Source: Capnocytophaga sp. (GTDB taxonomy: Bacteria > Bacteroidota > Bacteroidia > Flavobacteriales > Flavobacteriaceae). From it: a DNA stretch of 64,000 nt. The stretch's first letter is position 1; each line of letters starts with the position of its first letter. This document shows, piece by piece, positions 14,505-54,630 of this stretch. The notes under the pieces were generated by a model, which ran no database searches, was not told the origin of the DNA, and saw only the letters and a program-made list of their open reading frames with translations. A program made the position numbers and the translations under genes. The stretch covers positions 1 through 64,000 of the forward strand of contig NZ_JAUNKD010000002.1 of NCBI RefSeq assembly GCF_030532915.1, given 5' to 3'.

Positions 14505-14614
14505 AAACTCATACGTTGGGACTTGCAAAATGATACGTCGCATTTTTGAAAACGGAACGTCGCATTTCACAAAATGATACGTCGCATTTTTGAAATTCAA
14601 ACGTGTGGTTATAG
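14505..14614. repeat. Array of five ACGT-centred boxes at exactly 22-bp spacing
   Basis: ACGT occurs at 14513, 14535, 14557, 14579 and 14601, each exactly 22 bp from the next. Units two and four are identical over at least 22 bases and unit three is close, sharing ACGTCGCATTT; the first and last are degenerate. The array fills the leader between the 5' hairpin and the HU-HIG start codon. The sequence is seen directly; a regulatory role is inference. Confidence 0.85.
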
Positions 14615-14652
14615 TTAAAAATAAGTATTAATTTTTTAAAACATCTTGTGTT

Positions 14653-15033
14653 ATGCCTGTAAAATTTAAAGCTGTTCAGAAGCAAAATCCGCAGAAACGC
14701 ACTGAACCCGCCAAGTGGTATCCGCACGCCATCGGTGATGGCGAAACAAATCTGCAAGACCTTGCCGATTATGCATCGTCTGTTTCAACCGTGTCAAAAG
14801 GAGATATTTTGGCAGTGCTTGAAACCGTTTTGACCAAAGTAAGTGCTGACCTCTCAGAAGGGCGCATCGTGCGCGTGGGTGAGTACTTTACCTTACAGAT
14901 GGGGCTTACGGGGCTTCCGTCTGAAAAAGAAGAAGAAGTTAATTCAAGTAAAGTGAAGAGTTGCCATATTCTCTTTCGCCCCGGAAAGATGTTAAGCAAT
15001 ATGATTAAGCTGGCGACCTTCAAGAAATTGTAA
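14653..15033 (+). CDS. HU-family (HU-HIG type) DNA-binding protein
   Basis: The 126 residues match the Bacteroidota-specific HU-HIG branch of the HU/IHF family: MPVKFKAVQKQNPQ..., the segment TVSKGDILAVLETVL, and VRVGEYFTLQMG with a basic C-terminal part (KSCHILFRPGKML). Canonical HU is about 90 residues; the longer N-terminus is typical of this branch. Such proteins bind DNA with little sequence preference and are common in Bacteroidota, often in many copies per genome. The gene has its own promoter (14437-14468), a repeat-bearing leader and two successive terminators, so it is an isolated unit. Phased 22-bp arrays lie on both sides of it, which may mean that its product binds phased DNA or controls itself. 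Confidence 0.85.
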   Translation: MPVKFKAVQKQNPQKRTEPAKWYPHAIGDGETNLQDLADYASSVSTVSKGDILAVLETVLTKVSADLSEGRIVRVGEYFTLQMGLTGLPSEKEEEVNSSKVKSCHILFRPGKMLSNMIKLATFKKL

Positions 15034-15050
15034 AACAAACCGTTTAACCT

Positions 15051-15077
15051 CCGCCCCTCACACGGGCGGATTTTTTA
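15051..15077 (+). terminator. First terminator after the HU-HIG gene
   Basis: The stem CCGCCC / GGGCGG is followed by ATTTTTT. It lies 18 bp after the stop codon. Confidence 0.9.
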
Positions 15078-15084
15078 TTTAAAA

Positions 15085-15121
15085 AAACCTTTGCCAAAGT
15101 TCAGCACTTTCGCAAAGGTTT
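15085..15121 (+). terminator. Second terminator / palindromic repeat of the TTTGCCAAAG family
   Basis: The perfect arms AAACCTTTGC / GCAAAGGTTT have an inner AAAGT/ACTTT pairing and are followed by Ts. The core resembles the palindromes at 37203, 54377 and 54710. Confidence 0.8.
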
Positions 15122-15146
15122 TTTGTACGTTTCTATTAAAGAAATT

Positions 15147-15278
15147 GTTTGAGGTAGTTTGATGTCTGTTTTGATATGGTTTGATAGATTGTTTGAGGTA
15201 ATTTGAAAGTTTGTTTTAGTTTGTTTGATGAATGGTTTGAGGTATTTTGATGAATGTTTTGAGGTGGTTTGAAAAATT
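15147..15278. repeat. Three 44-bp tandem units built of TTTGA pentamers spaced 10 and 12 bp
   Basis: TTTGA occurs at 15148, 15158, 15170, 15180, 15192, 15202, 15224, 15236, 15246, 15258 and 15268, with a one-base variant (TTTTA) at 15214. The spacing alternates 10 and 12 bp throughout, giving 22-bp half units and exact 44-bp units at 15147, 15191 and 15235. The array lies between the terminators of the HU-HIG gene and the convergent membrane-protein gene. Confidence 0.88.
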
Positions 15279-15393
15279 GCTAAAAAGGTTGAGTTTGTTT
15301 GTAATGGTTAAAATCATAAAAAATACGTCCCCATAAATGAAATTAAATGTATTATAAACGATAAAAACAATAGCATTTTTTAATATTGCAACA

Positions 15394-15816
15394 TCAGGAA
15401 ATGACTTCTATACGGGGGTTTATACGCTTTAAGTCGGCAATAAATACCTCTTTGTCAAGGGGAGACAGCATTACCGAATCATATCGATTATAAAAAATCT
15501 CAATCCGGTCAAATGAAGTTACCAGTGGCGTATTCAAAATCGATTTAGTTTTTTCTATCTTTCGGATAGAATGAATATCGATTTCCTTCTTGTAAAAACA
15601 CCCTATTCGCCCGATGAATTTATCGCCATCTATCTGATATTTAACACTAAAAGCACCTATCAGCATCAATATCAGCACGATTATTACTGCAATAAGCGAC
15701 GTCAAAATCACCGCAACAGTAGGTATGCTCCACACTACAATTCCGACAGAAAACAAGGTAAACAACAGCCCGATTGCCATACTCCAACGGTCAATTTTAG
15801 GTTTATACTCGGTCAT
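15394..15816 (-). CDS. Small membrane protein with a bacterial PH-like domain
   Basis: The product has 140 residues. Two membrane spans (about 12-32 and 34-56) form an N-terminal hairpin. The C-terminal half (about 60-138) resembles the bacterial PH-like family bPH_4: YQIDGDKFIGRIGCFYKKEIDI, the segment SIRKIEKTKSIL, and DRIEIFYNRYDSVMLSPLDKEVFI. The function of this family is unknown. The stop lies close to the TTTGA array. It follows the HI0933-type flavoprotein gene by 12 bp, so the two probably share a transcript. Confidence 0.75.
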   Translation of the reverse strand: MTEYKPKIDRWSMAIGLLFTLFSVGIVVWSIPTVAVILTSLIAVIIVLILMLIGAFSVKYQIDGDKFIGRIGCFYKKEIDIHSIRKIEKTKSILNTPLVTSFDRIEIFYNRYDSVMLSPLDKEVFIADLKRINPRIEVIS

Positions 15817-15827
15817 TTTTCATAAAT

Positions 15828-17081
15828 TTACGGGTTTAAAAGCGTGGTTTCGGCTATGGTTTCAGCAATAATATACGCGCCTGTCCAGGCATTCTGAAAG
15901 TTAAATCCACCAGTTACGGCATCAACATCGATGACTTCACCTGCCAGAAATAAATCACTAAACAGCTTGCTTTCAAAGGTTTTGAAGTTTATTTCACTCA
16001 AAGCAACCCCGCCGGCTGTTACGAATTCTTCTTTAAAAACAGACTTTCCGTCAATGCGAAATTCGCAAACTGTCAGCTCCTTTGCCAAAGCTCGCAATTG
16101 GGCTTTGTTAAGTTCTGCCCACACTTGGTTGGGGTTAACCCCTGCCCTTTCCAAAAGCCGTACCCACAATCGCTTCGGAAGATTATAAAGCGCTGTGTTT
16201 TGCACCCCTTTGCGTGGTTGTTCTTGCTTGGTTTGTTGCAGTAACACAAAGGCTTCTTCTTGGTTAAGCACCCCGTCGGAATCTGCTAACCAATTGATTA
16301 GCAAACAACATTGATAGGAACGTTCTGCCAAAACGCGCGCTGCAAATGCCGAAAGTTTCAAGATGGCAGGCCCGCTAAACCCCCAATGTGTGATGAGAAG
16401 TGGTGCGAGGTTTTTCAGCTTTAAGGCGTTTCCGTCCGTATCAGCAAGCGAGGCTTCTGCCCAAGCAACACTTACCCCTGCCAAGTTTTCGATAAACGGG
16501 TCAGCCGTATTAAAGGTAAAAAGGGACGGAACCGGCGGTACTATCGTATGCCCTAACTTAGCTAAAAGTTGCCATATTTTAGGGTTACTGCCCGTGGCGA
16601 TAACCAGCTTTTTGGTTGTAAATACGGAAGATTGGGTAAAAACCTCCCAATATTCAGTGTGCTTTTTAAGGTTGGTTGCGTTTTGTTCGCGCAGGATTTG
16701 AATGTTATGCTGCTTGGCTTTTGACAGAAAGCAACTGATAATACTCTCGGAAGTGTTTGATTGTGGGAAGACACGCCCGTCATCTTCCACTTTGAGCGGC
16801 ACGCCCCGATTTTCAAACCACTCCATCACATCACCACACATAAAGCGGTGGAAGGGACTGAGAAGTTCCTTTTCACCCCGCGGATAGTTCCTGACCAATT
16901 GCTTGGGCAGATACTCGGCGTGGGTTAGGTTGCACCTGCCGCCTCCCGAAATTCGCACTTTTGAAAGTACCTCTTTGCCCTTTTCAAGCAAGGCAATTTT
17001 CAGTCGCGGATTTTTCTCTGCGCAGTTTATTGCCGTGAAAAAGCCCGCTGCACCTGCGCCAATAATCAATACATCAAACAT
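15828..17081 (-). CDS. HI0933/YhiN-type FAD-dependent oxidoreductase
   Basis: The product has 417 residues. The N-terminal Rossmann motif is VLIIGAGAAGFFTAINCA, followed by the family signature KVRISGGGRCNLTH near residue 42, and a C-terminal FAD motif ending AGEVIDVDAVTGGFNFQNAWTG. This is the HI0933 family (YhiN of E. coli), a flavoprotein of unresolved substrate. All nucleotide-binding motifs are intact and the length is normal. It begins about 45 bp after the terminator of the ferredoxin gene and runs into the small PH-domain gene with a 12-bp gap. Confidence 0.9.
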   Translation of the reverse strand: MFDVLIIGAGAAGFFTAINCAEKNPRLKIALLEKGKEVLSKVRISGGGRCNLTHAEYLPKQLVRNYPRGEKELLSPFHRFMCGDVMEWFENRGVPLKVEDDGRVFPQSNTSESIISCFLSKAKQHNIQILREQNATNLKKHTEYWEVFTQSSVFTTKKLVIATGSNPKIWQLLAKLGHTIVPPVPSLFTFNTADPFIENLAGVSVAWAEASLADTDGNALKLKNLAPLLITHWGFSGPAILKLSAFAARVLAERSYQCCLLINWLADSDGVLNQEEAFVLLQQTKQEQPRKGVQNTALYNLPKRLWVRLLERAGVNPNQVWAELNKAQLRALAKELTVCEFRIDGKSVFKEEFVTAGGVALSEINFKTFESKLFSDLFLAGEVIDVDAVTGGFNFQNAWTGAYIIAETIAETTLLNP

Positions 17082-17126
17082 AAAAGTAGCGTTATTTTTT
17101 AATGGTTACACCTTATTATATATATA

Positions 17127-17164
17127 AAAGTCGGGAACGTTCCTTGACGGAAGTCCCCGACTTT
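17127..17164 (-). terminator. Terminator after the ferredoxin gene
   Basis: The arms AAAGTCGGG / CCCGACTTT surround an inner palindrome (GGAACGTTCC on the minus strand), and the minus-strand tail is A+T-rich. It separates the ferredoxin transcript from the flavoprotein gene. Confidence 0.8.
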
Positions 17165-17213
17165 GGTTCGTTTTCTCAAAATCATTTACGTGAGCGCAAC
17201 GCCCGACTGCCTG

Positions 17214-17543
17214 TTACGGATAGGGTGCCAGCGTAACTTCAAGCCCGTCAATTTCGGCAGTGATTGGGATTTGGCACCCCAATCGGCTGTTTTCTTGCAC
17301 GTGATACGCCTCGAAAAGCATTGCCTCCTCCTCATCGGATTTCTCGGGTAGCACTACGTTATTTTGCACATAGCACTGACAAGAGGCGCACATTGCCATT
17401 CCGCCACACACGCCTATCTCGCCGTCTTGGGCAATTTCATAGGCGCGCATCACTTCCATCAGCGTCATATTCATATCGGTCGGAGCTTGCAGTTCAAACA
17501 AGTTCCCCTCACGGTCTGTTATTTTCAGTGTAATGTCATTCAT
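17214..17543 (-). CDS. Adrenodoxin-type [2Fe-2S] ferredoxin
   Basis: The product has 109 residues. The cluster ligands are Cys46, Cys52 and Cys55 in GVCGGMAMCASCQCYV and Cys90 in RLGCQIPI, the vertebrate/adrenodoxin-like arrangement. It is cytoplasmic and carries single electrons. The stop of the upstream YD-repeat gene is 2 bp away, and the TrxR-like ferredoxin-NADP reductase is the next gene beyond it, so the reductase is the natural electron donor. The final acceptor is not visible in this window. Confidence 0.92.
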   Translation of the reverse strand: MNDITLKITDREGNLFELQAPTDMNMTLMEVMRAYEIAQDGEIGVCGGMAMCASCQCYVQNNVVLPEKSDEEEAMLFEAYHVQENSRLGCQIPITAEIDGLEVTLAPYP

Positions 17544-17545
17544 TA

Positions 17546-18649
17546 TTAATAATATTGAATTTTACGAACGCGTAGTTTGGTTGGCACGCCTTGCTCGTAC
17601 AACACGGCTTCTTTCCAATTGCCTTTGGCGTCGAAGGTATATTTGTATTGGTGGTTAAAAGCGGGGGTTCGGTGTGTTTTGAGCAAGCCGTTTTTGTCAA
17701 AGACTTTCTTGGAGAGCACCTCGCCCCTTTCCGATTTGATGATTTCGGTTTTGCCCATCGTTCCGTACAACGTGTTGAGTTGGTGATAGAAGCTGGGGTC
17801 GTCTTTGGCTGTACAGACCGTTTCAATCAACCGACCGTTTTTGTCGTACGTATAGGTACAGACGGTTTCCTTTTTTTCTTCGTTCAAGTACGTGGCTTTG
17901 ACCAGTTTATTTTGCCGATTGTACTCTTTTTCAATCCGTAAGAACACGTTGTGTTCAGGAAATGACTCTTCGGAAAAGGTAATTTTCTTAGCCGAATTGT
18001 ACTGAAACTGCTCTTGTTTGGTGTATTTCTCTTGTACCCTATCCGAAGGCAGTGCCTTTGAACCCGCGTGATGCGACGCCTCATTTACCGGCTGAAAAAA
18101 GCTCGCTTCTTTGCGCCGCGCGATGCAATTACCGAGTTTGTCATATTCAAAAGCTATAGTTTCAAGCATCTGATTGCCTTCGTATTCCTCTATTTTTACC
18201 AAACGCTTTTTACCGTCATAGGAATATTTCTTGTGCGTAATGAAGTCTCCGTCCGACACACGAAAGCAAGTCTGACTTTTCACAAGTCGCCCCCCGAAGT
18301 CATACGTGAAGTCAGCCGTACCGAAAGGTTTTCCTTCGGCATAGTAGGTTGTAACATTTGTGTTTTTGCCGTTTTTGTCAAATTCATACGAAATATTGGT
18401 AAGCGAATGTTTGGGTTTGTCTTTTTGCATTGTCCAATCTTCCATAAACGGCATTGTGTTGAAGCGTTTCCCACCGATGGTTTTATCGCCTTTTGCGTTG
18501 GCTTCCAAATAATACGAGTAATCCTCAACCTTTTTCACCTTTCCTTTAATGGATAAGTTTTTGGGATTGATGGTATCAGTCTGGGCTTGTAGTGTAACCA
18601 CATTCATCATCAACAGCGCAAAAAGTAAGCGCCAGTTGTTCACGTTCAT
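17546..18649 (-). CDS. Secreted protein with YD (RHS-like) repeats
   Basis: The start chosen is the ATG opening the signal peptide MNVNNWRLLFALLMMNVVTLQAQ, four codons inside the longest frame; the product has 367 residues. The mature part carries at least six degenerate YD-type repeats, such as YSYDGKKRLVKIEEYEGN, FEYDKLGNCIARR, YTYDKNGRLIETVC and DKNGLLKTHR, and ends KYTFDAKGNWKEAVLY. YD repeats build hollow beta shells in RHS/Tc toxins, but short secreted copies without toxin domains are common in Bacteroidota and have no known role. It is wedged between the ferredoxin and ferredoxin-reductase genes, which splits an expected functional pair. Confidence 0.78.
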   Translation of the reverse strand: MNVNNWRLLFALLMMNVVTLQAQTDTINPKNLSIKGKVKKVEDYSYYLEANAKGDKTIGGKRFNTMPFMEDWTMQKDKPKHSLTNISYEFDKNGKNTNVTTYYAEGKPFGTADFTYDFGGRLVKSQTCFRVSDGDFITHKKYSYDGKKRLVKIEEYEGNQMLETIAFEYDKLGNCIARRKEASFFQPVNEASHHAGSKALPSDRVQEKYTKQEQFQYNSAKKITFSEESFPEHNVFLRIEKEYNRQNKLVKATYLNEEKKETVCTYTYDKNGRLIETVCTAKDDPSFYHQLNTLYGTMGKTEIIKSERGEVLSKKVFDKNGLLKTHRTPAFNHQYKYTFDAKGNWKEAVLYEQGVPTKLRVRKIQYY

Positions 18650-18694
18650 CTTCTCTCTCATCTCTAAAAAAATTAAATTTATATGCTTTTATAA

Positions 18695-19747
18695 TTATTC
18701 TATGGATTTTACTACGGCTTTCTCGGCTTCTTTTCGGCTTCCGTCAAAACCATCAACGCCTGCCACGGTGGTGTATTTAAGCACGTATTTCTTATTCGGA
18801 TTCAGGCGATTGTAAATACTTTGGCACATTAGAGTAGCCTCGTGGAAGCCACACAAAATCAGTTTGAGCTTACCGGGATACGTATTGATATCGCCAATGG
18901 CATAAATACCTTCAATATTGGTCTGATAATCCAAAGCATTATTTACTTTGATGGCATTCTTTTCAATTTCAAGCCCCCAGTTGGCGATTGCTCCCAGTTT
19001 GGGCACTAATCCGAAGAGGGGAATAAAATAATCCGTCGGCAGGGTTTGTTTTTCTCCTTCTTTAACTAAGCTGATGCTTTCCACCTTGCCGTTTCCGCTA
19101 ATTTCAACCACTTCGGCAGGAGTGATTAAATTGATTTTACCCTCGTTTTTTAGTTTTTGCACTTTTTCTACCGAATCTAACGCCCCACGGAATTCATTAC
19201 GGCGATGCACTAAGGTAACGGATTTGGCTACATCGGTCAGGAAGATAGCCCAGTCAAGAGCCGAGTCGCCCCCACCGGCAATGACGATGTTTTTACCACG
19301 AAATTGCTCCGGATTTTTTACAAAATACTCCACCCCTTTTTCTTCATAGGCTTGCAGATTAGGAATTTCGGGTTTTCGGGGTTCAAACGTTCCTAATCCG
19401 CCGGCAATGGCAACGGCTTTGCCTTGAATTTTCGTTCCTTTATTTGTGGTAACGACAAAGGTAGTGTCGTTTATCTTCTCGATATGTTCGGCGGTTTCGG
19501 AAAGCGTGAATTCGGGCTGAAACTGTTTGATTTGCTCCATCAGGTTATTCACCAGTTCGCCCGCCCCAACACTCGGGTAGCCGGGAATATCAAAAATGGG
19601 CTTCTTCGGATAAAGTTCAGCCAATTGCCCCCCCGGTTGCGGGAGTGCATCAATCAGATGGCATTTGAGTTTAAGCAATCCGGCTTCAAATACGGCAAAA
19701 AGCCCCGTAGGCCCTGCCCCAATGATGATAATATCAGTTTGTTTCAT
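18695..19747 (-). CDS. Ferredoxin--NADP+ reductase, thioredoxin-reductase-like
   Basis: The product has 350 residues with two nucleotide-binding domains: FAD motif IIIIGAGPTGLFAVFEAGL (residues 5-23), the segment PQPGGQLAELYPKKPIFDIPGYP, and NAD(P)H motif IVIAGGGDSALDWA near residue 150. The C-terminal part holds IYAIGDINTYPGKLKLILCGFHEA. The redox-active CxxC of thioredoxin reductase is absent, which places it in the TrxR-like FNR group (YumC type). It exchanges electrons between NADPH and ferredoxin; the [2Fe-2S] ferredoxin gene downstream is the likely partner. The CvpA gene lies 36 bp upstream, so one transcript probably covers 20260 to 17214. Confidence 0.9.
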   Translation of the reverse strand: MKQTDIIIIGAGPTGLFAVFEAGLLKLKCHLIDALPQPGGQLAELYPKKPIFDIPGYPSVGAGELVNNLMEQIKQFQPEFTLSETAEHIEKINDTTFVVTTNKGTKIQGKAVAIAGGLGTFEPRKPEIPNLQAYEEKGVEYFVKNPEQFRGKNIVIAGGGDSALDWAIFLTDVAKSVTLVHRRNEFRGALDSVEKVQKLKNEGKINLITPAEVVEISGNGKVESISLVKEGEKQTLPTDYFIPLFGLVPKLGAIANWGLEIEKNAIKVNNALDYQTNIEGIYAIGDINTYPGKLKLILCGFHEATLMCQSIYNRLNPNKKYVLKYTTVAGVDGFDGSRKEAEKAVVKSIE

Positions 19748-19783
19748 TCGTGTTATTTTCTTATTTTTTTTATTATTTCTATT

Positions 19784-20260
19784 TTAAAAAACATTGCCGT
19801 ACACCCAACCGCCAATAGTTTTAACCGGCTGATACAAAAACGATTGCCCTATTACATCTTGCGGAAGCCAACGGAATGTCTGTGAGGTTCTTTCAAGAAA
19901 CAAAAGCATCGACCCGACAATAACCGCCGCTTTTAACACCCCAAAAATACCGCCACAAAGCCGGTTGAAAAAGCCAAGCGAAACCGATTCCATCATTTTG
20001 GTAATCATTTTTGCCAGTAACATAACCGCTACCATTATTAAAATCAACGTGAAAGCAAATGAGATGACTTCCACCCCCGATTTGTCAAGCGACACATACT
20101 TATTGAGCAAATCAGCCACATAAAACGAAAAGTGAATAGCGCCGTAAATCCCTAATACAATGGCAAGTAAAGAAGCTAATTCAATGATTAAGCCCCGCCA
20201 AAAACCGCGTACTAAACCGAATCCTAAAAAAAGTAGCAGAATAATATCTATTGTGGTCAT
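19784..20260 (-). CDS. CvpA family membrane protein
   Basis: The product has 158 residues with four predicted spans and the CvpA signature near the N-terminus (IDIILLLFLGFGLVRGFWRGLIIELASLLAIVLG, residues 4-37). The family was named for colicin V production in E. coli and is linked to envelope integrity; its molecular role is unsettled. It leads the group CvpA, FNR, YD-repeat protein, ferredoxin. A perfect -7 box (TATATTTG, minus strand 20338-20345) lies about 80 bp upstream, without an obvious upstream TTTG. Confidence 0.85.
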   Translation of the reverse strand: MTTIDIILLLFLGFGLVRGFWRGLIIELASLLAIVLGIYGAIHFSFYVADLLNKYVSLDKSGVEVISFAFTLILIMVAVMLLAKMITKMMESVSLGFFNRLCGGIFGVLKAAVIVGSMLLFLERTSQTFRWLPQDVIGQSFLYQPVKTIGGWVYGNVF

Positions 20261-20514
20261 TCGTATATTTTATCGTAATGATGTTGTGATTTTTACCTTA
20301 AAATTTTGTTAAAAAGCAAAACAAACATATTAAGGGACAAATATATAACTTTTTTTGCTATTTTTGTACCTGTCAGACAAATAAATACACAACAATCTGT
20401 TTATTTATCGCACAAACCATCATTAAACACTAAAAATCAACACTTTATACAAAAATTGTTTTTTAGGTTTGAAAAAGATTTTTTAAGATTTTAAGAACGA
20501 AAAAATGTTGAATT

Positions 20515-21207: not shown

Positions 21208-21276
21208 ACCTTTTATCTGTGGAAGCGTCTAACCAAGTAACAAAATAATAATTTATAAATTTTAAAATTCAAACAG

Positions 21277-21474
21277 ATGAAAAACACTTTAAAGTTAGTC
21301 ACAGCAGCGTTCTGTATGTTCGTATTTAGTTCTAATGTTCAAGCAATTACCTTAGACCAAGAAGTTAAAGTTGAACAAAGTGAACCAAAGCAAGAAAAAA
21401 AATGTTGTAAATCAAAAAAATCTTGTAACAAAGACAAAAAATCTTGCAGTAAAGATAAAGGAGATAAAATGTAA
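21277..21474 (+). CDS. Small exported Cys/Lys-rich peptide
   Basis: The product has 65 residues. A clear signal peptide (MKNTLKLVTAAFCMFVFSSNVQA) would leave a mature chain of about 42 residues. The mature part begins acidic and ends as a Lys/Asp-rich tail with four cysteines in the pattern KKCCKSKKSC...KSCSKDKGDK. I do not recognise a named family; similar short Cys/Lys tails occur in Flavobacteriia. Metal binding or disulfide-mediated surface attachment are possible, neither shown. It has its own terminator at 21495-21522 and follows comF by 69 bp. Confidence 0.75.
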   Translation: MKNTLKLVTAAFCMFVFSSNVQAITLDQEVKVEQSEPKQEKKCCKSKKSCNKDKKSCSKDKGDKM

Positions 21475-21494
21475 TTTTTCTTGTTTGTAAATGT

Positions 21495-21522
21495 AAAAAC
21501 TCGGCGTAAAGTCGAGTTTTTT
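21495..21522 (+). terminator. Terminator of the Cys/Lys-rich peptide gene
   Basis: The stem AAAACTCG / CGAGTTTT is followed by TT. It lies 20 bp past the stop codon. Confidence 0.85.
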
Positions 21523-21613
21523 GTTTGTAATTAACCCTCTTTTATGTTTTCTGTCGTATATTTGCAGGTTGAAAAAATACAACTAAAAATCCCTTATTTC
21601 AAATTTAATATCC

Positions 21614-26211: not shown

Positions 26212-26218
26212 AAATACT

Positions 26219-26449
26219 CAAAAAAGACATTTTACTAAGCAAAAACACATACAAACCAAGCAAAAAAGACACTTTATCAAACGATAATCCATCAGAAATA
26301 AATAAAAAAGATGTGGTATTACACAAAAAAGACATTAAAATAAATAAAAATCCATTGGCAGTATCGAAAAAATACAATTAATTTCTTAAAAATATATTCG
26401 TATTACCAAAAAAGGAATAGTAACTATTTAAAAAAATACACCTAATTTA
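26219..26449. repeat. Eleven A-tract units in strict 21-bp register
   Basis: Starting 8 bp after the rsmA stop, units begin at 26219, 26240, 26261, 26282, 26303, 26324, 26345, 26366, 26387, 26408 and 26429, every 21 bp. Ten of the eleven open with a run of five to seven A (the unit at 26282 is the degenerate one). The best conserved share CAAAAAAGACA. A-tracts phased at twice the helical repeat are expected to curve DNA. The sequence is seen directly; the curvature is inference from known A-tract behaviour. Confidence 0.85.
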
Positions 26450-26692: not shown

Positions 26693-27343
26693 ATGGTAAA
26701 AAAAATGAACTTCAAACAAGAACATTATACGGCAGTAGCTGACTTTATTGCTGTTAGTTTTGAGAGAGATTTAGCCGATTTTTCCAAAACATTCAAAACA
26801 ATGAATGAATCATATTTAGAAACCTTTAAACAAGCAATTGAAGTAGCTAAAAATTCGGTTGCACCAACAGAATTGGTTGTAAAACGAAAGCAAACAACAA
26901 AAAATCTGCACGAAAAAGCAAAAGAATTAAGTGATATTCTTGTATTTTTGAAAAAATATGCACAACGAGCATCAGTTGATGCACCTAAATTACAAGAAAC
27001 AATTACCTATCTGAAGACAAAGAATATAGAAGGTGCTATAAAATCATTGCGTGATATACTTCCGTACTTCATTAGCATTCAAGAATCGTTGGTTGATATG
27101 CCTGAAAACTTTTTAGATAAAATACCACCGCTTGTTACTGCTATTGAAGGACTTAATACAGAACAAAACAAATATACGAATGAAGTAAAAAAGATGAGTA
27201 ATGAGCGAAAACCCATTTATAAAAACCTTTATAAGTATATAAGTGAAATTGCAGATGCCGGTAAAATAATTTACAAAGACAGTTATAAAAAGTCAGAGTA
27301 CACGATTTCAAAGTTACTTGCACGTGTTCAAAGCAAAGTGTAA
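26693..27343 (+). CDS. Unknown all-helical cytoplasmic protein
   Basis: The product has 216 residues (or 212 from the second ATG). I do not recognise a named family. The sequence is almost entirely amphipathic helix, with no signal peptide or membrane span and few prolines, and is lysine-rich (KRKQTTKNLHEKAKELSDILVFL...). Its size and its middle segment (helix, then FL..Y, then a helix) loosely resemble the DUF6261-like protein at 37311-37976. It has its own promoter and is isolated from rsmA by a terminator. It lies between rsmA and mgtE, which are usually close neighbours in Flavobacteriia, so it looks inserted. The phased A-tract array lies just upstream. Base composition is A+T-richer than neighbouring housekeeping genes. 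Confidence 0.75.
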   Translation: MVKKMNFKQEHYTAVADFIAVSFERDLADFSKTFKTMNESYLETFKQAIEVAKNSVAPTELVVKRKQTTKNLHEKAKELSDILVFLKKYAQRASVDAPKLQETITYLKTKNIEGAIKSLRDILPYFISIQESLVDMPENFLDKIPPLVTAIEGLNTEQNKYTNEVKKMSNERKPIYKNLYKYISEIADAGKIIYKDSYKKSEYTISKLLARVQSKV

Positions 27344-37310: not shown

Positions 37311-37976
37311 TTAACCTTTGGCAGCTTTTACAAATTCATTCAGGTTGTTGTACAAAGAAACCCACGCATCTGCATCAAACATCAGCGTGACAAGGTCTAA
37401 AAAGCGACGTAAATCACGCTCCAATTCCTTGCGTTGCTTTGTTGCGGAGGTTTTTTCACGAAGTTCAGCATTGGCTTGCGCTTGCTGGTTGAAATGCATC
37501 TTAAACTCTTCGTGTTTTACCTTCATTGTTTCAAAAGCAGTTTCAAGCGCCAAGTTTTTTATGTACTCTTGGTTCTCAGCGGACGAAAGTGCTTCAATGA
37601 GTTTCCCTAACTGGATGGTTTGTTCAGCATACGAAAGCTGATCTTGTTTCAAACCAAACAATTTAAACTGCTCGTAGAGCGCAACAGCATCATTATAGTT
37701 CGGAACAGATGAAACACGCGTGTAACCTGATAAAAACACCTTCATATCAGAAAAAGCTTTGTCGCGTTCTTTATTAGCTTGCGCCACAGTTTTTCCCTTT
37801 CCGCTGAATGCTTGTTTAGATACCGAAGGGTAATACTTTTCATACGAAGCTTCTAATTTAGTCATAAACAAATGTCTTTTCGCTTCGTTAATGTCTGATT
37901 TCTTTACAGCCTCAATAATTCGTTCGGCAAGGGCTGCTAAATCCTTTGTTGATAATTTTCTGTAATTTAATCTCAT
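37311..37976 (-). CDS. DUF6261-like helical protein
   Basis: The product has 221 residues and is cytoplasmic and entirely helical. The start MRLNYRKLSTKDLAALAERIIEAVKKSD and the body with KVFLSGYTRVSSVP fit DUF6261, a Bacteroidota family of unknown function often present in several copies; the assignment is from memory of the pattern, not a search. A charged coiled-coil-like segment (ELREKTSATKQRKELERDLRRFL) lies near the end. It resembles the 216-residue protein at 26693 in size and helix arrangement. The 42-bp repeat array starts about 70 bp upstream of its start codon and a palindrome lies downstream. Confidence 0.75.
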   Translation of the reverse strand: MRLNYRKLSTKDLAALAERIIEAVKKSDINEAKRHLFMTKLEASYEKYYPSVSKQAFSGKGKTVAQANKERDKAFSDMKVFLSGYTRVSSVPNYNDAVALYEQFKLFGLKQDQLSYAEQTIQLGKLIEALSSAENQEYIKNLALETAFETMKVKHEEFKMHFNQQAQANAELREKTSATKQRKELERDLRRFLDLVTLMFDADAWVSLYNNLNEFVKAAKG

Positions 37977-38047: not shown

Positions 38048-38341
38048 TTTCGCTCAATGTAATTAGTTTGTTTTACTAAATTTAACCAATAACATCAAGT
38101 GAATTCTGTTTATATTATAACTTTAAAATTATTTCATCTTGTGAAGTAAATTTAAAATCTAAAAATAAACTTATTTCATTTACTGCAATCAGCTTGATTT
38201 GTTAATTTAAATTTATTTCGTCAAGTGCAATGGGTTTATTTTATTATTTTAAAACAATTGCATCGTACGTAATTTGTTTAATTCGTAATTTTATAAAAAT
38301 ACACTTGCTGATTTTAGCTAAAATCATAAAATTACATTACA
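38048..38341. repeat. Seven 42-bp tandem units (two 21-bp halves)
   Basis: Units start at 38048, 38090, 38132, 38174, 38216, 38258 and 38300. The first half of each unit reads near TTTCRTCAAGTGCAAT; the second half is almost pure A/T (near TATTTTATTATTTTAAA). The register is kept without insertion over all seven, though the last unit is weak. A further partial match to the first half (ACTGCAATCGGTTGATTT) occurs out of register near 38362. Confidence 0.85.
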
Positions 38342-38497: not shown

Positions 38498-38567
38498 GTA
38501 GGGGCGTATTGCATACGTCCGCTAAAGTATTTCATCGGTGTTTAGGGCGTATACAATACGCCCCTAC
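38498..38567. repeat. REP-like inverted repeat with GTAGGGGCGTATTG ends
   Basis: GTAGGGGCGTATTGCATACG (38498-38517) is largely mirrored by CGTATACAATACGCCCCTAC (38548-38567), giving a long imperfect hairpin with about 30 bases between the arms. Short palindromic elements of this look are dispersed in many bacterial genomes. It is not associated with a gene of its own. Confidence 0.75.
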
Positions 38568-44429: not shown

Positions 44430-44435
44430 ATTAAA

Positions 44436-44546: not shown

Positions 44547-44606
44547 ACAAACTCAATCTTACCTTCTTATTATGAAAAATACATTTGGAACACGTATTTA
44601 TAAACT

Positions 44607-44630: not shown

Positions 44631-44635
44631 TTCTG

Positions 44636-45691: not shown

Positions 45692-45827
45692 AAATTTCTC
45701 TATTTGTTATTCTTATGCTTAAAAGCGCGTCCGTCATCTTACGAAGGTCGCAGTTGTAATCTTTCTAGTGGGCAAAGATACTATATTGAAACGACAAAAA
45801 CGGCTTTTTACAGAAAAAATAGAAAAA

Positions 45828-45861
45828 GAAATTGCCGATTTTATACAAAACCGACAATTTC
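45828..45861 (-). terminator. Terminator of the XRE-membrane regulator gene
   Basis: On the minus strand a 15-bp stem (arms 45847-45861 and 45828-45842, all paired with two G-T pairs) is followed by TTTTTC. It lies about 30 bp after the gene's stop. Confidence 0.88.
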
Positions 45862-45891
45862 AGTAAAATGAAACAAAATTTTCATCGTTTT

Positions 45892-46782: not shown

Positions 46783-46883
46783 ACTTTTTTTCTACAAAAA
46801 TACGATACCAGCAACTTTTTTCACAGAATTGCGTTACGTCAATTTTATGACATTTTACTTTAAAAATGCCATAAAACTGAAAA

Positions 46884-49373: not shown

Positions 49374-49557
49374 ATTAAATTGTTTATAAGTAACGAAAAT
49401 AAATTTTCCCGCAAAGGTAACGAAATTTTGGTTGATTTTCGGCGTAAAAAGCATAAAATTGAACAACAAAACGTGTTTTTCTGATTTCGTTTCAACAAAA
49501 ATTAGTATCTTTGCAAAACATTTCATTTTTCGACAGAAGAGAATAAAACGCAAATAT

Positions 49558-50988
49558 ATGTATATCAGCATAAAAGAAATATTAAACAAAGGAAAAATAG
49601 CGCAAGAAGTAACCTTAAAAGGCTGGGTTCGTACCTTCCGAAGCAACCGTTTCATTGCATTGAACGACGGTTCAACCATTGAAAACGTACAAATCGTTGT
49701 GGATTTCGAGAAAACGGACGAAGCCCTACTAAAACGCATCACCACCGGAGCCGCCCTTGAAGTGAAAGGCGTTGTTGTGGAAAGCCAAGGAAAAGGGCAA
49801 TCCATTGAAATTCAAGCAACGGAAGTGAACGTTTTGGGTGATTCCAATCCGGAAGAATATCCGATTCAGCCCAAAAAACACTCGTTTGAATTTTTGCGCG
49901 AAAATGCCCATCTGCGGGTGCGTACCAATGTTTTCGGGGCGATTATGCGGGTGCGGTCGGCATTGGCGTTTGCCATTCACGATTACTTCCAACAAAACGG
50001 ATTTTTCTACGTGAACACGCCTATCATCACCGGAAGCGATGCCGAAGGTGCCGGCGAAATGTTCCGCGTAACAACCTTAGATGCTAAAAATCCGCCACTT
50101 ACCGACGAAGGCAAAGTCGATTTCAAAAAAGATTTCTTCGGAAGAGAAACCAATTTGACCGTTTCGGGGCAGCTTGAAGGCGAAACCTTTGCGATGGCTT
50201 TGGGTAAAATTTATACGTTCGGACCTACGTTCCGTGCCGAAAATTCCAACACTTCACGTCACTTGGCTGAGTTTTGGATGATTGAACCCGAAGTGGCGTT
50301 CCTTGACCTTGACGGAAATATGGATTTGGCAGAAGATTTCATCAAATACGTGCTGAAATACACGCTTGAACGTTGCCGTGAAGACATTGATTTTTTGAAC
50401 AAACGCTTCTTGGAGGAAGAAAAAACCAAACCGCAAAACCAACGCAGTTCAATGTCGCTTATCGAGAAATTGGAGTTCGTCATCAACAACGACTTCAAAC
50501 GCGTGAGCTACACCGAAGCCATTGATATTCTGAAAAATTCAAACCATAATAAAAAGAAAAAATTCCAGTACCTTATCGACGAATGGGGGGCTGATTTACA
50601 AAGCGAACACGAGCGTTATTTGGTGGAAAAACACTTCCAATGTCCGGTGATTTTGTTCGATTATCCGGCGAAAATCAAAGCGTTTTATATGCGATTGAAC
50701 GAAGACGGAAAAACCGTTCGTGCGATGGACATTCTCTTCCCCGGCATTGGAGAAATCGTCGGCGGGTCGCAACGTGAGGAGCGTTACGAGGTGCTGGTTG
50801 AAAAAATCAAAGCGATGGGCATCGACGAGAAAGAACTTTGGTGGTACTTGGATTTACGCAAATTCGGAACGGCGGTACACAGCGGTTTCGGACTCGGATT
50901 TGAGCGCCTGGTGCTTTTCACTACCGGAATGACCAACATCCGCGACGTAATTCCATTCCCCAGAACACCGCAAAACGCGGAGTTTTAA
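49558..50988 (+). CDS. asnS: Asparagine--tRNA ligase
   Basis: This 476-residue class IIb synthetase starts at the ATG giving [17 protein letters not shown]; the frame runs 42 codons further upstream through A+T-rich leader. The OB-fold anticodon-binding domain (about 17-110) has [22 protein letters not shown]. The catalytic domain has motif 2 ([21 protein letters not shown]) and motif 3 ([15 protein letters not shown], then [12 protein letters not shown]). A perfect -7 box TATCTTTG lies at 49506-49513. The terminator at 51031-51072 ends the transcript. Confidence 0.97.
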
Positions 50989-51030
50989 CACTTAAATTTG
51001 AGGGTTATACAATTTGTTTTTTTATTTTTT

Positions 51031-51072
51031 TCTGTCCAAAGGAAAATTTCTTTCTTTGGGCAGATTTTTTTT
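51031..51072 (+). terminator. Terminator of asnS
   Basis: TCTGTCCAAAG pairs with CTTTGGGCAGA (one base bulged) and is followed by eight Ts. Confidence 0.85.
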
Positions 51073-51120
51073 ATGGCTCGTTTTTTACCGAGATTAGATA
51101 AAGACCGAAAATCACAAAAA

Positions 51121-51153
51121 AAACCTCGGTAAAGGTTTTTCTTTCCGAGGTTT
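51121..51153 (-). terminator. Terminator of the porin-like gene
   Basis: The arms AAACCTCGG / CCGAGGTTT flank a pyrimidine-rich loop, with T-runs on both strands. It lies 14 bp past the stop of the minus-strand gene and can also stop read-through from asnS. Confidence 0.85.
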
Positions 51154-51166
51154 TTTCATTTCAAAA

Positions 51167-51745
51167 CTAAAATTTTAAACCGACTCCTATTTGTATTTGT
51201 TGTGTTTTTGCTTCGGCTCCAAAGTCACTAATGTTGGCAAAGCCCCAAACATAACGCCCGTAAACGAAAAAGATTCCGAGATTTACTTCTGCGCCGGCAA
51301 CGAATGAAAAGTCCGGATTTTTAAAGAGTTTTTCTCCGTTTTGCCACAAGTTGTCGTTGCTGTTGGTTAAAATACCAAACTGCGGACCGGCAAGCAATGA
51401 AATAAATCCGTCGGGATTGTACTTCAACAGCACGGGCAGATTTAAGTAGTTCAGTTTCTTGCCCTTATTAAACTTATCATCCCAAACCGAAGCATACGAA
51501 TCACGGAAGGTGGTGTTGGTTTGGTCAAACAAAACCTCGCCCTGCAAAGCAAAATCATCTGACAGATTCACGCTTACAAAGCCGCCCAGTTGGTAGCCCA
51601 ATTTAAATTGCTTATCATAGGCAATTCCGTCAAGTTTACCCAAATTGGCTCCGGCTTTTACCCCCAAACTCACCTGCGAGTATCCGTCGGACGGAAACAG
51701 TAGTAGCCCCAGCATCGCTGCGAAAAATAAAATCGTTTTTTTCAT
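51167..51745 (-). CDS. Porin-like outer-membrane beta-barrel protein
   Basis: The product has 192 residues with a signal peptide (MKKTILFFAAMLGLLLFPSDGYSQ). The body matches the PorT-like/outer-membrane beta-barrel family: VSLGVKAGANLGKLDG, KLGYQLGGFVSVNLSDDFALQGEVLF, LLKYNPDGFISLLAGPQFGIL, and the terminal strand IQIGVGLKF. The family is widespread in Bacteroidota with diverse or unknown roles. It is monocistronic, about 70 bp upstream of the hybrid kinase stop, with the same orientation. Confidence 0.85.
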   Translation of the reverse strand: MKKTILFFAAMLGLLLFPSDGYSQVSLGVKAGANLGKLDGIAYDKQFKLGYQLGGFVSVNLSDDFALQGEVLFDQTNTTFRDSYASVWDDKFNKGKKLNYLNLPVLLKYNPDGFISLLAGPQFGILTNSNDNLWQNGEKLFKNPDFSFVAGAEVNLGIFFVYGRYVWGFANISDFGAEAKTQQIQIGVGLKF

Positions 51746-51814
51746 AATAAAACAAATTAAAATTTCAAAGTATGAAGCAATAACCGTACCAATTTTGACT
51801 GAAACCCTATTTTT

Positions 51815-54280
51815 TCACAATTTGCAATAGGCTTCAATGGCAGGTTTGCACTCTTGCACAAACAAATCTTCCAGTTCTTCAATTTTTAGAATGATTTCCA
51901 AAACACTTTCGGTTGAAATATGATTCAGGTGGTTTAAAACATCCACCTCGCGTCGGGCATTTATTTGTCCGAACATACTGAGCATTTTATGGGCTATGGC
52001 TCTGACCTCGTCGTTATTTCGGGTGGTGGCATAGAGTTTTAGCCGAGCGATATTATCTTGTGTTTCACTGATAAAACTCTGATACAAAGCGATGATTCCC
52101 TCTTTATCATCGCCCATAAATTGCTCCAACACCTCGGGCTGATATGCCGTGCTTTCGGTTGGGAGAGGCTCAACAACATCGGGGCTTACTTCAATTCGCG
52201 GAAAAAAAGTATTCAGTTTCTGATAGAATTGATGTGGCGAAAAAGGTTTCGACAAAATCCCTGAAAATCCGTTTTGAGTGTAAAAACTCTCAGGAACATC
52301 CTTCCTGCCGGTAATTGCCAACACCGGAATCGGGTTGTTTTTGTACTTCTCATTGAAAAGCGTAACAAAGTGAAAACCATTCATTTCCGGAAGCTGAATG
52401 TCAGTAATAACCATATCAAACTCCAACGAATTCATTTTCGAGAAAGCCTCCTTTCCGTTATTAAACGGAAAAACTTTGATGTTTTTCTGCTGTAAAAGTT
52501 CTTCAATCAGCCCCAAAATTGTGGCATCATCGTCAATGGCGAGAATGGTTATCTGCTCGGGCGCTTTTTCGGAAGTAACCTGCGGGGCGCTCACTTTCGG
52601 CGCTTCCGACACTTTTTCGGCAACAAACGTCAGCGTGAAGGTACTCCCCACATTTTCTTCACTCACAAGTGTAATGTTACCTTTGAGCAAGTGCGCCAGC
52701 TTTTGCGAAATGTGCAAGCCCAAGCCCGACCCGCCGTAACGTTTTGATACATCAAGGCTTGCCTGAGTAAACTCATCAAAAATATGCGCTTGATGCTCCT
52801 TTTTGATGCCGATGCCCGAGTCGGTAACCGCAATGACAATCTCATAGATTTTGTCCGAAATGGCTTTCGCGTGACTTTCTATGCAGATTTCACCCGCTTC
52901 GGTAAACTTAAACGCATTGGAAATCAAATTGTAAAGAATCTGCTTAATGCGATACGAATCATTTGAAAACTTACTTTGCTGCACCACTTCCGATGCCTCC
53001 ACACGTAGCGCGATGGGCTTGGCTTTATGAATAGACCGCACGTTATCGGTAACCTCGCGGATAATCTCGGCAATATTTAGCGGTACTTTTTCAACGCTGA
53101 CCTTCCCCGCTTCAAGTTTCGAGTAATCAAGCAGTTCGTCAACCAATTTCTGAATATATTCCGATGAATATTTAATGTGCGAGAGGTAATTCTTGCTCTT
53201 TTCGGTGATTTCCTGCTTGCCCAACAACTCGGAGTACCCGATGATGGAACTTAGCGGCGTGCGCAAATCGTGGCTCACCATCGAGACCAGTTGCTCGCGG
53301 CTTTTCAAAAGGCGGTTGCTTTTCAGGTTTGCCCGCTCCAATTCGTGTCGGTATTTTTGAATTTTCCAGAAGTCACGAACAATCACAAACGAAAAGAAAA
53401 TCGTAATAATAATGGCAAAAATATAGGAAATAATCAGGTAAGTCTTACTCTTTTCAAAAATAATGCGCCGTTCGCGATTAATTTCTTGTGAACTTGCCAA
53501 AAAATCGTCCTCAAAATTAGAGAGCAAGTCGTTGAGTTTCTCCGACATACGGTTGTCGTTATGCCACAGGGTTTGTATCTTTTCGTTTTGCTTGTACTCG
53601 TGTTTGAGTGTTTCTTTATGCACCCGATTGAGCAGGCGCAAGGCTTCCAGTACGGTTTCGTCAAACTTTGATTGACTGCGCGTTGGCGGAATTTTAATGT
53701 CTTTGTATCGGTTTAAAATCGACGGAATATCCGAGCGGTTTGCCTCTCTGACCGAATCCAAGCGCGGTTCGGTCTTCTCCTTTTCCTTGGCAGAAGCCAG
53801 ATTGTCATTCAGCAAAAAATAGCCCAATGAAGGCTCCAAACTCGAAAGTTTTTTGATGGCGTTGCGTATGATAATCGTTGAACTGTCATTACGCTGAATT
53901 TCTTTAAGCTCTTGCAGGTTTTTACTTTTGAGTTGCAACAAAATCTGCACGGAATCAATCATTTGCAAATGCTTGCTTGATGACACACTTTCGCGAAACT
54001 TGGCGATACTATCCTCCAAAATGCGGTTCTTTTCCAAAAAGAAACCAAGCGCCTGCTCGTCATCAGAACGAATGGCAATTTTTCCGGCACTTTCCGCTTC
54101 GTTAATAAGCGTAAGTATTTTATTGATTCGAAGCATTTTGCCGCGATTCATCTGATGAATTTCTTCCGAAGTGGTTAATTTCTGAATTTCCCCGTAGGTG
54201 ATAATGGCAACCGTTGCCGAAGTGAGTATCAACAAGGAATACCCCAAAATGATTTTTAATGTTATTTTCTGAGATTTCAT
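51815..54280 (-). CDS. Hybrid sensor histidine kinase with receiver and HPt domains
   Basis: The product has 821 residues. Architecture: membrane span (about 9-28), helical periplasmic sensor (about 30-275), second span (about 277-298), HisKA with VSHDLRTPLSS (His near 336), HATPase with SNAFKFTEAG and GGSGLGLHISQKL, receiver domain with TILAIDDDATI and MVITDIQLP (Asp near 625), and a C-terminal histidine phosphotransfer domain with AIAHKML (His near 763). It would run a His-Asp-His relay but no separate output regulator is encoded beside it. Its signal is unknown. A 42-bp repeat array begins about 140 bp upstream of the start. Confidence 0.93.
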   Translation of the reverse strand: MKSQKITLKIILGYSLLILTSATVAIITYGEIQKLTTSEEIHQMNRGKMLRINKILTLINEAESAGKIAIRSDDEQALGFFLEKNRILEDSIAKFRESVSSSKHLQMIDSVQILLQLKSKNLQELKEIQRNDSSTIIIRNAIKKLSSLEPSLGYFLLNDNLASAKEKEKTEPRLDSVREANRSDIPSILNRYKDIKIPPTRSQSKFDETVLEALRLLNRVHKETLKHEYKQNEKIQTLWHNDNRMSEKLNDLLSNFEDDFLASSQEINRERRIIFEKSKTYLIISYIFAIIITIFFSFVIVRDFWKIQKYRHELERANLKSNRLLKSREQLVSMVSHDLRTPLSSIIGYSELLGKQEITEKSKNYLSHIKYSSEYIQKLVDELLDYSKLEAGKVSVEKVPLNIAEIIREVTDNVRSIHKAKPIALRVEASEVVQQSKFSNDSYRIKQILYNLISNAFKFTEAGEICIESHAKAISDKIYEIVIAVTDSGIGIKKEHQAHIFDEFTQASLDVSKRYGGSGLGLHISQKLAHLLKGNITLVSEENVGSTFTLTFVAEKVSEAPKVSAPQVTSEKAPEQITILAIDDDATILGLIEELLQQKNIKVFPFNNGKEAFSKMNSLEFDMVITDIQLPEMNGFHFVTLFNEKYKNNPIPVLAITGRKDVPESFYTQNGFSGILSKPFSPHQFYQKLNTFFPRIEVSPDVVEPLPTESTAYQPEVLEQFMGDDKEGIIALYQSFISETQDNIARLKLYATTRNNDEVRAIAHKMLSMFGQINARREVDVLNHLNHISTESVLEIILKIEELEDLFVQECKPAIEAYCKL

Positions 54281-54376
54281 ACGCTTTAAAGAAAGAATAA
54301 ACGTTCATTCCACCGACAAAAATAAGGCTTTTTCACGAAAAACCGAAGCAAGCCCGCTAAATATTTCCGTTTGGGC

Positions 54377-54409
54377 ATCTTTGGCAGAGTTCAAAACTTT
54401 GCCAAAGAT
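54377..54409. repeat. Palindrome ATCTTTGGCA...TGCCAAAGAT, copy 1
   Basis: The arms ATCTTTGGCA and TGCCAAAGAT enclose GAGTTCAAAACTT. The same 29-base core recurs at 54710-54744. Confidence 0.85.
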
Positions 54410-54420
54410 TTCGTGCATCA

Positions 54421-54630
54421 TTTGAAGTTTTTTAGCCGTTTCTTTACGGAAAGAAACCGGAATCCTGAAATTCTTTCAACTTTCCACACGGAAATACATT
54501 AGAATTTCAGAATTCCGAATACTTTCTTATCAGAAAACACCTATCGTTTCAGAATTTTCATTACTTTTTACACAGAAAGAAGCCGAAATTTTGATTTTTT
54601 TACTATTTTTATTACACAAGAGCGAAATAT
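54421..54630. repeat. Degenerate 42-bp tandem array upstream of the hybrid kinase
   Basis: CRGAAA occurs at 54447, 54489, 54531 and 54573, and ACTTT at 54479, 54521 and 54563, all exactly 42 bp apart. The units at 54505 and 54547 share TTTCAGAATT and most other positions without gaps. Units at 54421 and 54589 are weaker. Confidence 0.7.

What the first reader, a model, noticed from the sequence alone, without database searches (positions are those of the whole stretch)
14505..54630. A shared rule: intergenic arrays with helix-multiple periods but different sequences
Arrays at 14.5, 15.2, 26.2, 38.1 and 54.4 kb have periods of 22, 22/44, 21, 42 and 42 bp, all near two or four helical turns, although their units do not resemble each other. 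This is hard to explain by ordinary tandem duplication, which fixes sequence, not pitch. One hypothesis is that one nucleoid or architectural protein recognises phased, curved DNA and so shapes chromosome folding or gene expression. The HU-HIG protein encoded between two arrays is a candidate. An alternative is one replication-slippage mechanism favouring helical multiples.
Basis: inference. Interest (0 to 1): 0.75.

Follow-up and report, generated by a model that had tools for sequence, protein, structure and literature searches.

The report
Genes carrying helix-phased palindrome arrays
In Capnocytophaga and related bacteria, two families of poorly understood genes tend to sit beside their own row of evenly spaced DNA sites, often palindromic; the spacing (about two turns of the DNA helix) is shared from gene to gene while the letters differ, which suggests DNA-binding proteins that act on sites next to their own genes.

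Summary
An unbiased lag scan finds the arrays at 14.5, 15.2, 26.2, 38.1 and 54.4 kb, each beyond 200 of 200 shuffles, at lags 22, 44, 42, 42 and 42. The rule belongs to particular genes, not to intergenic DNA in general. (1) DUF6261 genes (17 in this Capnocytophaga genome) have UPSTREAM arrays of period 41-43 in 88 of 114 loci, against 13 of 190 other genes; outside the genus 27 of 34. (2) Full-length HU-HIG genes have DOWNSTREAM arrays of period 22 in 16 of 21 loci of the genus, and 22 or 44 in 8 of 9 outside it, against 0 of 13 short HU genes. (3) The gene after the 26.2 kb array is another small helical protein; 7 of 12 relatives (itself included) have upstream 21/41/42/63 arrays. Many arrays are palindromic, with axes about 21 or 22 bp apart, without clear compensatory change or G-U excess, so the symmetry looks like DNA, not RNA. 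A-tract phasing was not found. Best reading: each gene's protein, or a partner, binds its own array as helically phased dimers, much as Rep proteins bind iterons. Arrays and linkage are shown; binding is inferred.

The parts
14505..14604 (+). 22-bp array, 4.5 units, quasi-palindromic (AAAATGATACGTCGCATTTT-like), just upstream of HU-HIG
14653..15033 (+). full-length HU-HIG gene (126 aa, pI 9.2)
   Evidence: Pfam PF18291 E=7.8e-24; pI
15143..15279 (+). 22/44/88-bp array, about 6 units, downstream of HU-HIG; this one is not palindromic (z -0.5)
26215..26435 (+). 21/42-bp array upstream of the 216-aa gene; symmetry not tested
26693..27343 (+). 216-aa basic helical protein ('D2' here), no Pfam hit below 0.001; relatives in 8 of 20 genomes of the genus
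37311..37976 (-). DUF6261 gene (221 aa, all-helical AlphaFold2 model, pLDDT 93)
   Evidence: Pfam PF19775 E=4.9e-16; model
38066..38300 (-). 42-bp array, 5.6 units, upstream of DUF6261, dyad-symmetric (z 4.6-5.0)
54439..54619 (+). 42-bp orphan array, dyad-symmetric (z 5.3); similar to an array upstream of DUF6261 in G009 (L061); no DUF6261 remnant found here
21385..21459 (+). weak 21-bp array (p=0.025) upstream of the Mfd-like gene; not symmetric (z -0.8)

Best explanation
The arrays are multi-site binding platforms in double-stranded DNA, each belonging to one neighbouring gene. Shown: DUF6261 genes are mostly preceded by, and full-length HU-HIG genes mostly followed by, rows of sites at a family-specific pitch (41-43 bp, often holding two dyads about 21 bp apart; 22 bp, often holding one dyad). 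Sequence is mostly locus-specific, and the architecture recurs across classes of the phylum. Inferred: the gene's own small protein binds each palindrome as a dimer. Two-turn spacing puts all dimers on one face of the helix so that they bind cooperatively, giving autoregulation and/or a nucleating nucleoprotein assembly. Selection then fixes pitch and symmetry while sequence drifts with the paralogue. Orphan arrays would be further targets or relics. HU-HIG is the stronger candidate binder because it is an HU-family protein; for DUF6261, binding is a guess from cis-linkage and charge.
For: Linkage, DUF6261 upstream: best period 41-43 in 77 of 101 loci (67 of 69 with score 18 or more) versus 13 of 190 other genes and 7 of 62 DUF6261 downstream regions; 27 of 34 outside the genus, of which 11 of 13 were fetched after the rule was fixed. 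Grouping loci that share upstream words leaves 104 groups, 79 with a representative at 41-43. HU-HIG downstream: period 22 in 16 of 21 tested (of 37 full-length matches), versus 2 of 21 upstream and 0 of 13 short HU genes; outside the genus 22 in 4 and 44 in 4 of 9, versus 0 of 11 short ones at 22 or 44. TRF, an independent method: 51 of the 62 DUF6261 regions with a hit at 40-44 or 82-86; 14 of the 14 HU-HIG regions with a hit at 22, 44 or 66; controls 3 and 12 of 46. Symmetry: over 78 arrays a second palindrome peak appears at exactly half a unit (+1.09 against about -0.1); HU-HIG arrays mean dyad z 3.06, 17 of 22 at 2 or more. DNA rather than RNA: no covariation in 20 arrays picked as palindromic, all outside the genus (890 versus 883.3 +/- 7.5, reached by 108 of 500), and G-T 96 versus A-C 131; no Rfam hit in 6 sources searched; promoter-like sites, found in 22 of 78, lie between array and start in 17. 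Cis candidate: neighbours are not conserved (149 proteins, 122 clusters), DUF6261 median pI 8.9. Trans sites: TTCYTGACGTCARGAA (up to 1 mismatch) occurs at 11 places in 6 clusters, 5 with copies exactly 22 bp apart; like units lie in the array beside HU-HIG gene L224 and as scattered copies beside L005.
Against: No binding data. DUF6261 has no PDB sequence or fold match and no recognised DNA-binding domain; 17 of 102 have pI below 6. Units within an array are often only about 60-70% alike, loose for a sequence-specific protein. Dyad symmetry is not significantly stronger in DUF6261 arrays than in 29 other arrays (mean z 2.9 versus 2.05, p=0.12); z of 3 or more is reached by 30 of 67 DUF6261 arrays and 12 of 22 HU-HIG arrays, and the 15.2 kb array has none. 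The second axis falls near half a unit in only 22 of 78 arrays. 26 of 114 DUF6261 loci do not have best period 41-43; L046 lacks the array that its orthologues L009 and L047 have. Of the 9 out-of-genus HU-HIG loci, the four with period 44 score only 12-18, and L235 gives 23; HU-HIG gene L005 has no 22-bp array by score. Over all 67 arrays covariation was slightly positive (2489 versus 2451.8 +/- 13.9), with the axis chosen on the same data. The promoter-site score was barely above shuffled (7.96 versus 7.71).
Confidence: 0.55

Rival explanations
1. RNA element: the arrays are transcribed hairpin repeats that guard or process the neighbouring protein, like the repeat antitoxins of type III toxin-antitoxin systems.
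For: Tandem repeats of similar length precede a small protein gene; some units look like hairpins (L058, L127, L190). In 10 of 67 arrays the end lies less than 60 bp from the start codon. G-T slightly exceeds A-C over 67 arrays (464 versus 406) and in HU-HIG arrays (73 versus 55).
Against: In the more palindromic sets G-T does not exceed A-C (169/183; 125/163; 96/131) and covariation is absent; no Rfam match in the 6 sources searched; HU-HIG arrays lie on the other side of their gene; promoter-like sites mostly lie after the array.
Confidence: 0.15
2. Geometry-only binding: an architectural protein (HU-HIG or another) reads spacing or DNA shape rather than sequence, so pitch is kept while letters drift, shaping the nucleoid.
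For: Units differ between most loci; orthologous arrays L009 and L047 keep period 43 at 67-70% DNA identity. Full-length HU-HIG occurs in 11 of 11 genomes with 2 or more DUF6261 and 0 of 9 with 1 or none.
Against: No A-tract phasing; a palindromic consensus in many arrays argues for sequence readout; two family-specific pitches rather than one. The co-occurrence may simply follow the genus tree.
Confidence: 0.2
3. Neutral tandem duplication that prefers helical multiples, or MITE-like repeats, lying by chance near these genes.
For: Other arrays with other periods exist in the genus; MITE-like duplications at 63 and 82-86 bp occur, also before some DUF6261 genes such as L020; P. gingivalis has 22, 23 and 41-nt repeats, some inside MITEs (PMC4596501, passages).
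Against: 88 of 114 versus 13 of 190 (Fisher p about 4e-38, orthologues not removed), 79 of 104 after grouping, one-sidedness, and recurrence across families and classes with mostly unrelated units.
Confidence: 0.05

Closest known systems
Plasmid iterons with a neighbouring rep gene (recalled, not tested against a reference here)
   Same: Tandem sites about 22 bp apart on one helical face, sequence specific to each replicon, beside the gene of the protein that binds them
   Different: Chromosomal, many mostly unrelated copies per genome; proteins are DUF6261 or HU-HIG, not Rep; many units palindromic; no origin function known
Partition centromeres such as parC/ParR (recalled)
   Same: Helically phased repeat array next to a small DNA-binding protein gene
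   Different: No conserved neighbour of any kind, hence no constant ParM/ParA-type partner; multi-copy
Type III toxin-antitoxin repeat RNAs (recalled)
   Same: Array of repeats of similar length before a small protein gene
   Different: No clear RNA signature; all-helical protein
P. gingivalis BrickBuilt (23 nt) and 464/PgRS (41 nt) repeats, PMC4596501 (passages read)
   Same: Bacteroidota; arrays with unit lengths 22, 23 and 41 nt, BrickBuilt intergenic
   Different: Described as dispersed, sequence-related MITE-like elements; no link to HU-HIG or DUF6261 in the passages read

Membership tests
Iteron-type arrays | Tandem repeats at about two helical turns beside a gene | tested here: met
Iteron-type arrays | Neighbouring gene encodes a Rep initiator | tested here: not met
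   Pfam gives DUF6261 and HU-HIG, not Rep, for the window genes
Iteron-type arrays | Cognate protein binds the repeats | not testable with these tools
   needs EMSA or ChIP
Type III toxin-antitoxin | Repeats act as structured RNA | tested here: not met
   no covariation and no G-U excess in 20 palindromic arrays; no Rfam hit in 6 sources; RNA itself not observed
Type III toxin-antitoxin | Toxin of the ToxN/CptN/TenpN families | tested here: not met
   no such hit: Pfam for the window DUF6261 gene, PADLOC and NCBIfam for 5 DUF6261 proteins and the 216-aa protein
Phased A-tract curved DNA | A-tracts at 10-11 bp intervals | tested here: not met
   67 DUF6261 arrays
DUF6261 (PF19775) | Pfam gathering score, window 37311-37976 | tested here: met
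   59.5 bits against cut-off 27
DUF6261 (PF19775) | Homology of window 26693-27343 to DUF6261 | tested here: inconclusive
   own HMM E=0.004; profile-profile probability 1%; no DUF6261 hit in Pfam for any of 11 members
HU-HIG (PF18291) | Full-length match, window 14653-15033 | tested here: met
   positions 1-125 of 125, 84.5 bits

The most novel reading that the evidence does not exclude
HU-HIG and DUF6261 are two halves of one previously unseen chromosome-organising system of Bacteroidota. Each paralogue nucleates a helically phased nucleoprotein filament on its own palindromic array (22 bp downstream for HU-HIG, 2 x 21 bp upstream for DUF6261). The genome thus carries dozens of mutually orthogonal, self-encoded anchor sites that are gained and lost as cassettes.
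Probability: 0.25. Interest if true: 0.92.

Novelty: new variant of a known kind. Interest (0 to 1): 0.8.

Why it matters
DUF6261 is listed by Pfam as of unknown function, and one held paper mentions it once (listing only). Linking it, and HU-HIG, to arrays whose pitch is kept while sequence mostly is not gives both families a direct, cheap test: does the protein bind its array, and does a half-turn insertion break it? If true, it shows how a paralogous family can keep many orthogonal DNA targets in one cell, and it adds a gene-linked source of nucleoid or regulatory architecture across a phylum.

Tried and rejected
Curved-DNA reading: rejected after no 10-11 bp A-tract series was found. RNA-hairpin reading: looked good on single units but failed the wobble and covariation tests in the palindromic sets (slightly positive). 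Defence reading: only weak PADLOC hits, E 0.001-0.01, in 3 of 6 proteins. Homology of the 216-aa protein to DUF6261: own HMM E=0.004, but profile-profile probability 1%, so not claimed; by eye its model has a similar helix order. Decayed DUF6261 beside orphan arrays: nothing better than E about 1 in a six-frame search of 8 regions. Mobile carriage, asked with one DUF6261 protein (L016): 2 of 72,556 plasmid records and 2 of 50,697 phage records matched; the two 'Bacteriophage sp.' records are unverified fecal scaffolds. Viral contigs: one scan with the L186 protein, no relative. Genes were called by ORF length, not by curated annotation.

Rows dropped before counts: 103 loci were given, 102 had an ORF by HMM and 101 had 200 bp or more upstream (L011 dropped). 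In one search, L197 counts as a miss only because a run of N was read as A. In one search, 24 of the 27 relatives' loci had a long enough upstream gap. HU-HIG: 21 of 37 matches with E<1e-20 were tested, and 9 of the 12 out-of-genus full-length matches (E<1e-18). L200 and L201 print the same array units. One search used 29 of the 30 HU-HIG loci (L222 left out). The dyad test covers the 22 of 30 loci with a 22-bp score of 12 or more; L223 scored period 22 but not, where a different ORF was taken. The 20 arrays were picked by me as palindromic. One search used 29 DUF6261 arrays (one, L056, of period 51) and 13 other arrays as queries.
Full report
What was checked. Every lag from 8 to 60 was scanned in the 27 testable intergenic gaps of the window against 200 dinucleotide shuffles. 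A sixth (21.4 kb, lag 21) reached p=0.025. In a sample of 464 kb from the 2.66-Mb genome, 30 of 146 gaps beat 100 shuffles over lags 8-120. Reading them separates degenerate arrays of period 21, 22, 42 or 43 from near-identical MITE-like duplications of 63 and 82-86 bp. Other genomes of the genus behave differently: G018 is dominated by 11 bp, G012 shows 11, 14, 21 and 41, G015 (no DUF6261) has mixed lags, and G003 (20 DUF6261 genes) gave 4 significant gaps of 44, none at 21, 22 or 42. So pitch is not a general law of intergenic DNA here.

Where it is. The two database hits to the L009 DUF6261 protein are Capnocytophaga felis and C. cynodegmi, with contig lengths equal to those of G009:C7 and G008:C24, so the genus is Capnocytophaga. 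The window species itself was not named.

The gene link, DUF6261. The genome has 17 DUF6261 genes. In 15 of 16 testable upstream gaps the best lag is 41-43 or 82-86; 9 of the 16 beat all 100 shuffles, and a few of these (for instance L020, 86 bp) are near-identical MITE-like duplications. With a fixed rule (best period 14-69 in the 500 bp before the start), 77 of 101 loci give 41-43, and 67 of the 69 with score 18 or more do (12 of 16 in the own genome). Upstream regions of 190 other genes in five genomes give 13; DUF6261 downstream regions give 7 of 62. Outside the genus 27 of 34 obey; of the 13 fetched after the rule was fixed 11 obey, including Riemerella anatipestifer (score 14) and Prevotella nigrescens records. 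After grouping loci with shared upstream words, 79 of 104 representatives obey. TRF, which allows indels, has a hit in 62 of 114 regions, 51 of them at 40-44 or 82-86; controls have 3 of 46 there. Among 67 arrays the periods are 41 (21), 42 (39) and 43 (7), with a median of 4.1 copies, ending a median of 150 bp before the start codon. In a BLAST of 29 DUF6261 arrays, units of different loci seldom match. The exceptions are orthologues (L009 with G009), three paralogues of one other genus (L113, L123, L127 with L058), one orphan array (L030) sharing the unit of L016, and two short AT-rich hits of 26-30 bp; of the 13 other arrays used as queries, the 54.4 kb one matched L061.

The gene link, HU-HIG. 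In 21 full-length HU-HIG loci of the genus (of 37 matches) the best period in the 500 bp AFTER the stop is 22 in 16, with 44 and 66 in two more; the other three (L005, L199, L222) have none. Upstream it is 21-22 in 2 of 21. Short core-HU genes give 0 of 13 on either side. Outside the genus, 9 full-length loci give 22 four times, 44 four times (scores 12-18) and 23 once; 11 short ones give no 22 or 44, but 21 twice and 66 twice at scores of 12 or less. TRF has a downstream hit in 14 of 29, all at 22, 44 or 66; upstream 2 of 29, one of them at 22. The window's HU-HIG gene has a 22-bp array on both sides. Across 20 Capnocytophaga genomes, full-length HU-HIG (E<1e-20) is present in 11 of 11 with two or more DUF6261 genes and in 0 of 9 with one or none (Fisher p 6e-6). 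No correction for the tree was made.

The gene link, 216-aa family. The protein after the 26.2 kb array has 12 matches in 8 of 20 genomes, itself included. Of these 12 loci, 6 have upstream arrays of 21, 42 or 63 with score 37 or more and one has 41; of the other five, one has a 25-bp array (score 19), three are weak and one has no upstream DNA. Its kinship to DUF6261 is not established.

Symmetry. Many DUF6261 units hold two palindromes half a unit apart, seen most easily in L193, L195, L196 and L198. Over 78 arrays, local palindromicity measured from the best axis has a single sharp second peak at exactly 0.50 of the unit, although the second-best axis itself falls near half a unit in only 22 of 78. 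Dyad z is 3 or more in 29-30 of 67 DUF6261 arrays. HU-HIG units often hold one palindrome (mean z 3.06 over 22 arrays), although the 15.2 kb array has none. Against this, 29 arrays beside other genes are also somewhat symmetric (mean z 2.05 versus 2.9, p=0.12). Some of these are probably the same kind: the four 41-42 bp ones score 5.3 (window 54.4 kb, confirmed), 5.6, 1.8 and 3.6.

DNA or RNA. In 20 arrays picked as palindromic, dealing the right-hand letters anew among units changes pairing little (890 versus 883.3 +/- 7.5, reached in 108 of 500), and G-T mispairs (96) do not exceed A-C (131). Over 67 arrays G-T/A-C is 464/406, in the 31 most symmetric of them 169/183, and at the best axes of 78 arrays 125/163; for HU-HIG it is 73/55. 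All-array covariation was slightly positive but selected on the same data. Consensus symmetry without compensation is what dimer-binding sites in duplex DNA would show. No Rfam family reached its gathering score in the window and five loci. Promoter-like sites (recalled consensus, last 300 bp only) were found in 22 of 78, 17 of them between array and start.

How it may work. Pitch and side depend on the gene family while sequence mostly depends on the locus, and no other neighbour is conserved. Both proteins are small; most DUF6261 are basic (72 of 102 with pI above 8, 17 below 6), and HU-HIG belongs to the HU family. The inferred mechanism is cooperative binding of dimers on one face of the helix, as with iterons (recalled). 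The palindrome TTCYTGACGTCARGAA, like units in the array beside HU-HIG gene L224 and scattered copies beside L005, recurs in 6 clusters of the genome, 5 of them with copies exactly 22 bp apart, with none for the reversed control pattern. That fits trans targets.

Protein models. AlphaFold2 gives confident all-helical models for DUF6261 (pLDDT 93.3) and the 216-aa protein (90.4). Foldseek finds no PDB match at E 0.001 or below for either.

Novelty. DUF6261 appears in one held paper, seen as a search listing only, on Streptococcus daptomycin resistance. HU-HIG appears in four listings; one, on a Bacteroides vulgatus strain, may name the gene and was not opened. Searches for repeat arrays in such genomes or beside such genes listed nothing that reports this link (listings, plus passages of two papers). 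One listing reports 7-bp intergenic direct repeats in Beggiatoaceae (PMC4679880) and one treats A-tract periodicity and nucleoid proteins (PMC3940949); neither was opened. The library lacks most subscription journals.

Noticed in passing
window 54377-54410 and 54711-54744; also 15086-15130: A 34-bp palindromic element (TTTGGCAGAGTTCAAAACTTTGCCAAAG) occurs as two 97% identical direct copies flanking the 54.4 kb array, with a related palindrome after the HU-HIG gene.
   Followed up: no
L031:6180-6318, L032:4791-6318, window 38502-38563: Dispersed MITE-like palindromes (GGGCGAATTGCAATTCGCCC and variants) cluster at 63- and 82-bp spacing.
   Followed up: no
L101-L106 (G018): A same-genus genome with one DUF6261 and no full-length HU-HIG has many intergenic regions with an 11-bp period (9 of 15 significant gaps).
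   Followed up: no
L057, L059 downstream of DUF6261; L108 in G012: Arrays of 14-bp period, a third pitch, occur downstream of two DUF6261 genes and elsewhere in G012.
   Followed up: no
G000:C6:98456-100454, C19:13878, C33:11518, C73:3210 and C73:90199: Clusters of the palindrome TTCYTGACGTCARGAA, five of six with copies exactly 22 bp apart: candidate trans targets of one HU-HIG paralogue.
   Followed up: partly
L186, L187: Short unverified fecal 'Bacteriophage sp.' scaffolds (4.2 and 6.3 kb) encode DUF6261; L186 has a weak 41-bp array before the gene.
   Followed up: partly
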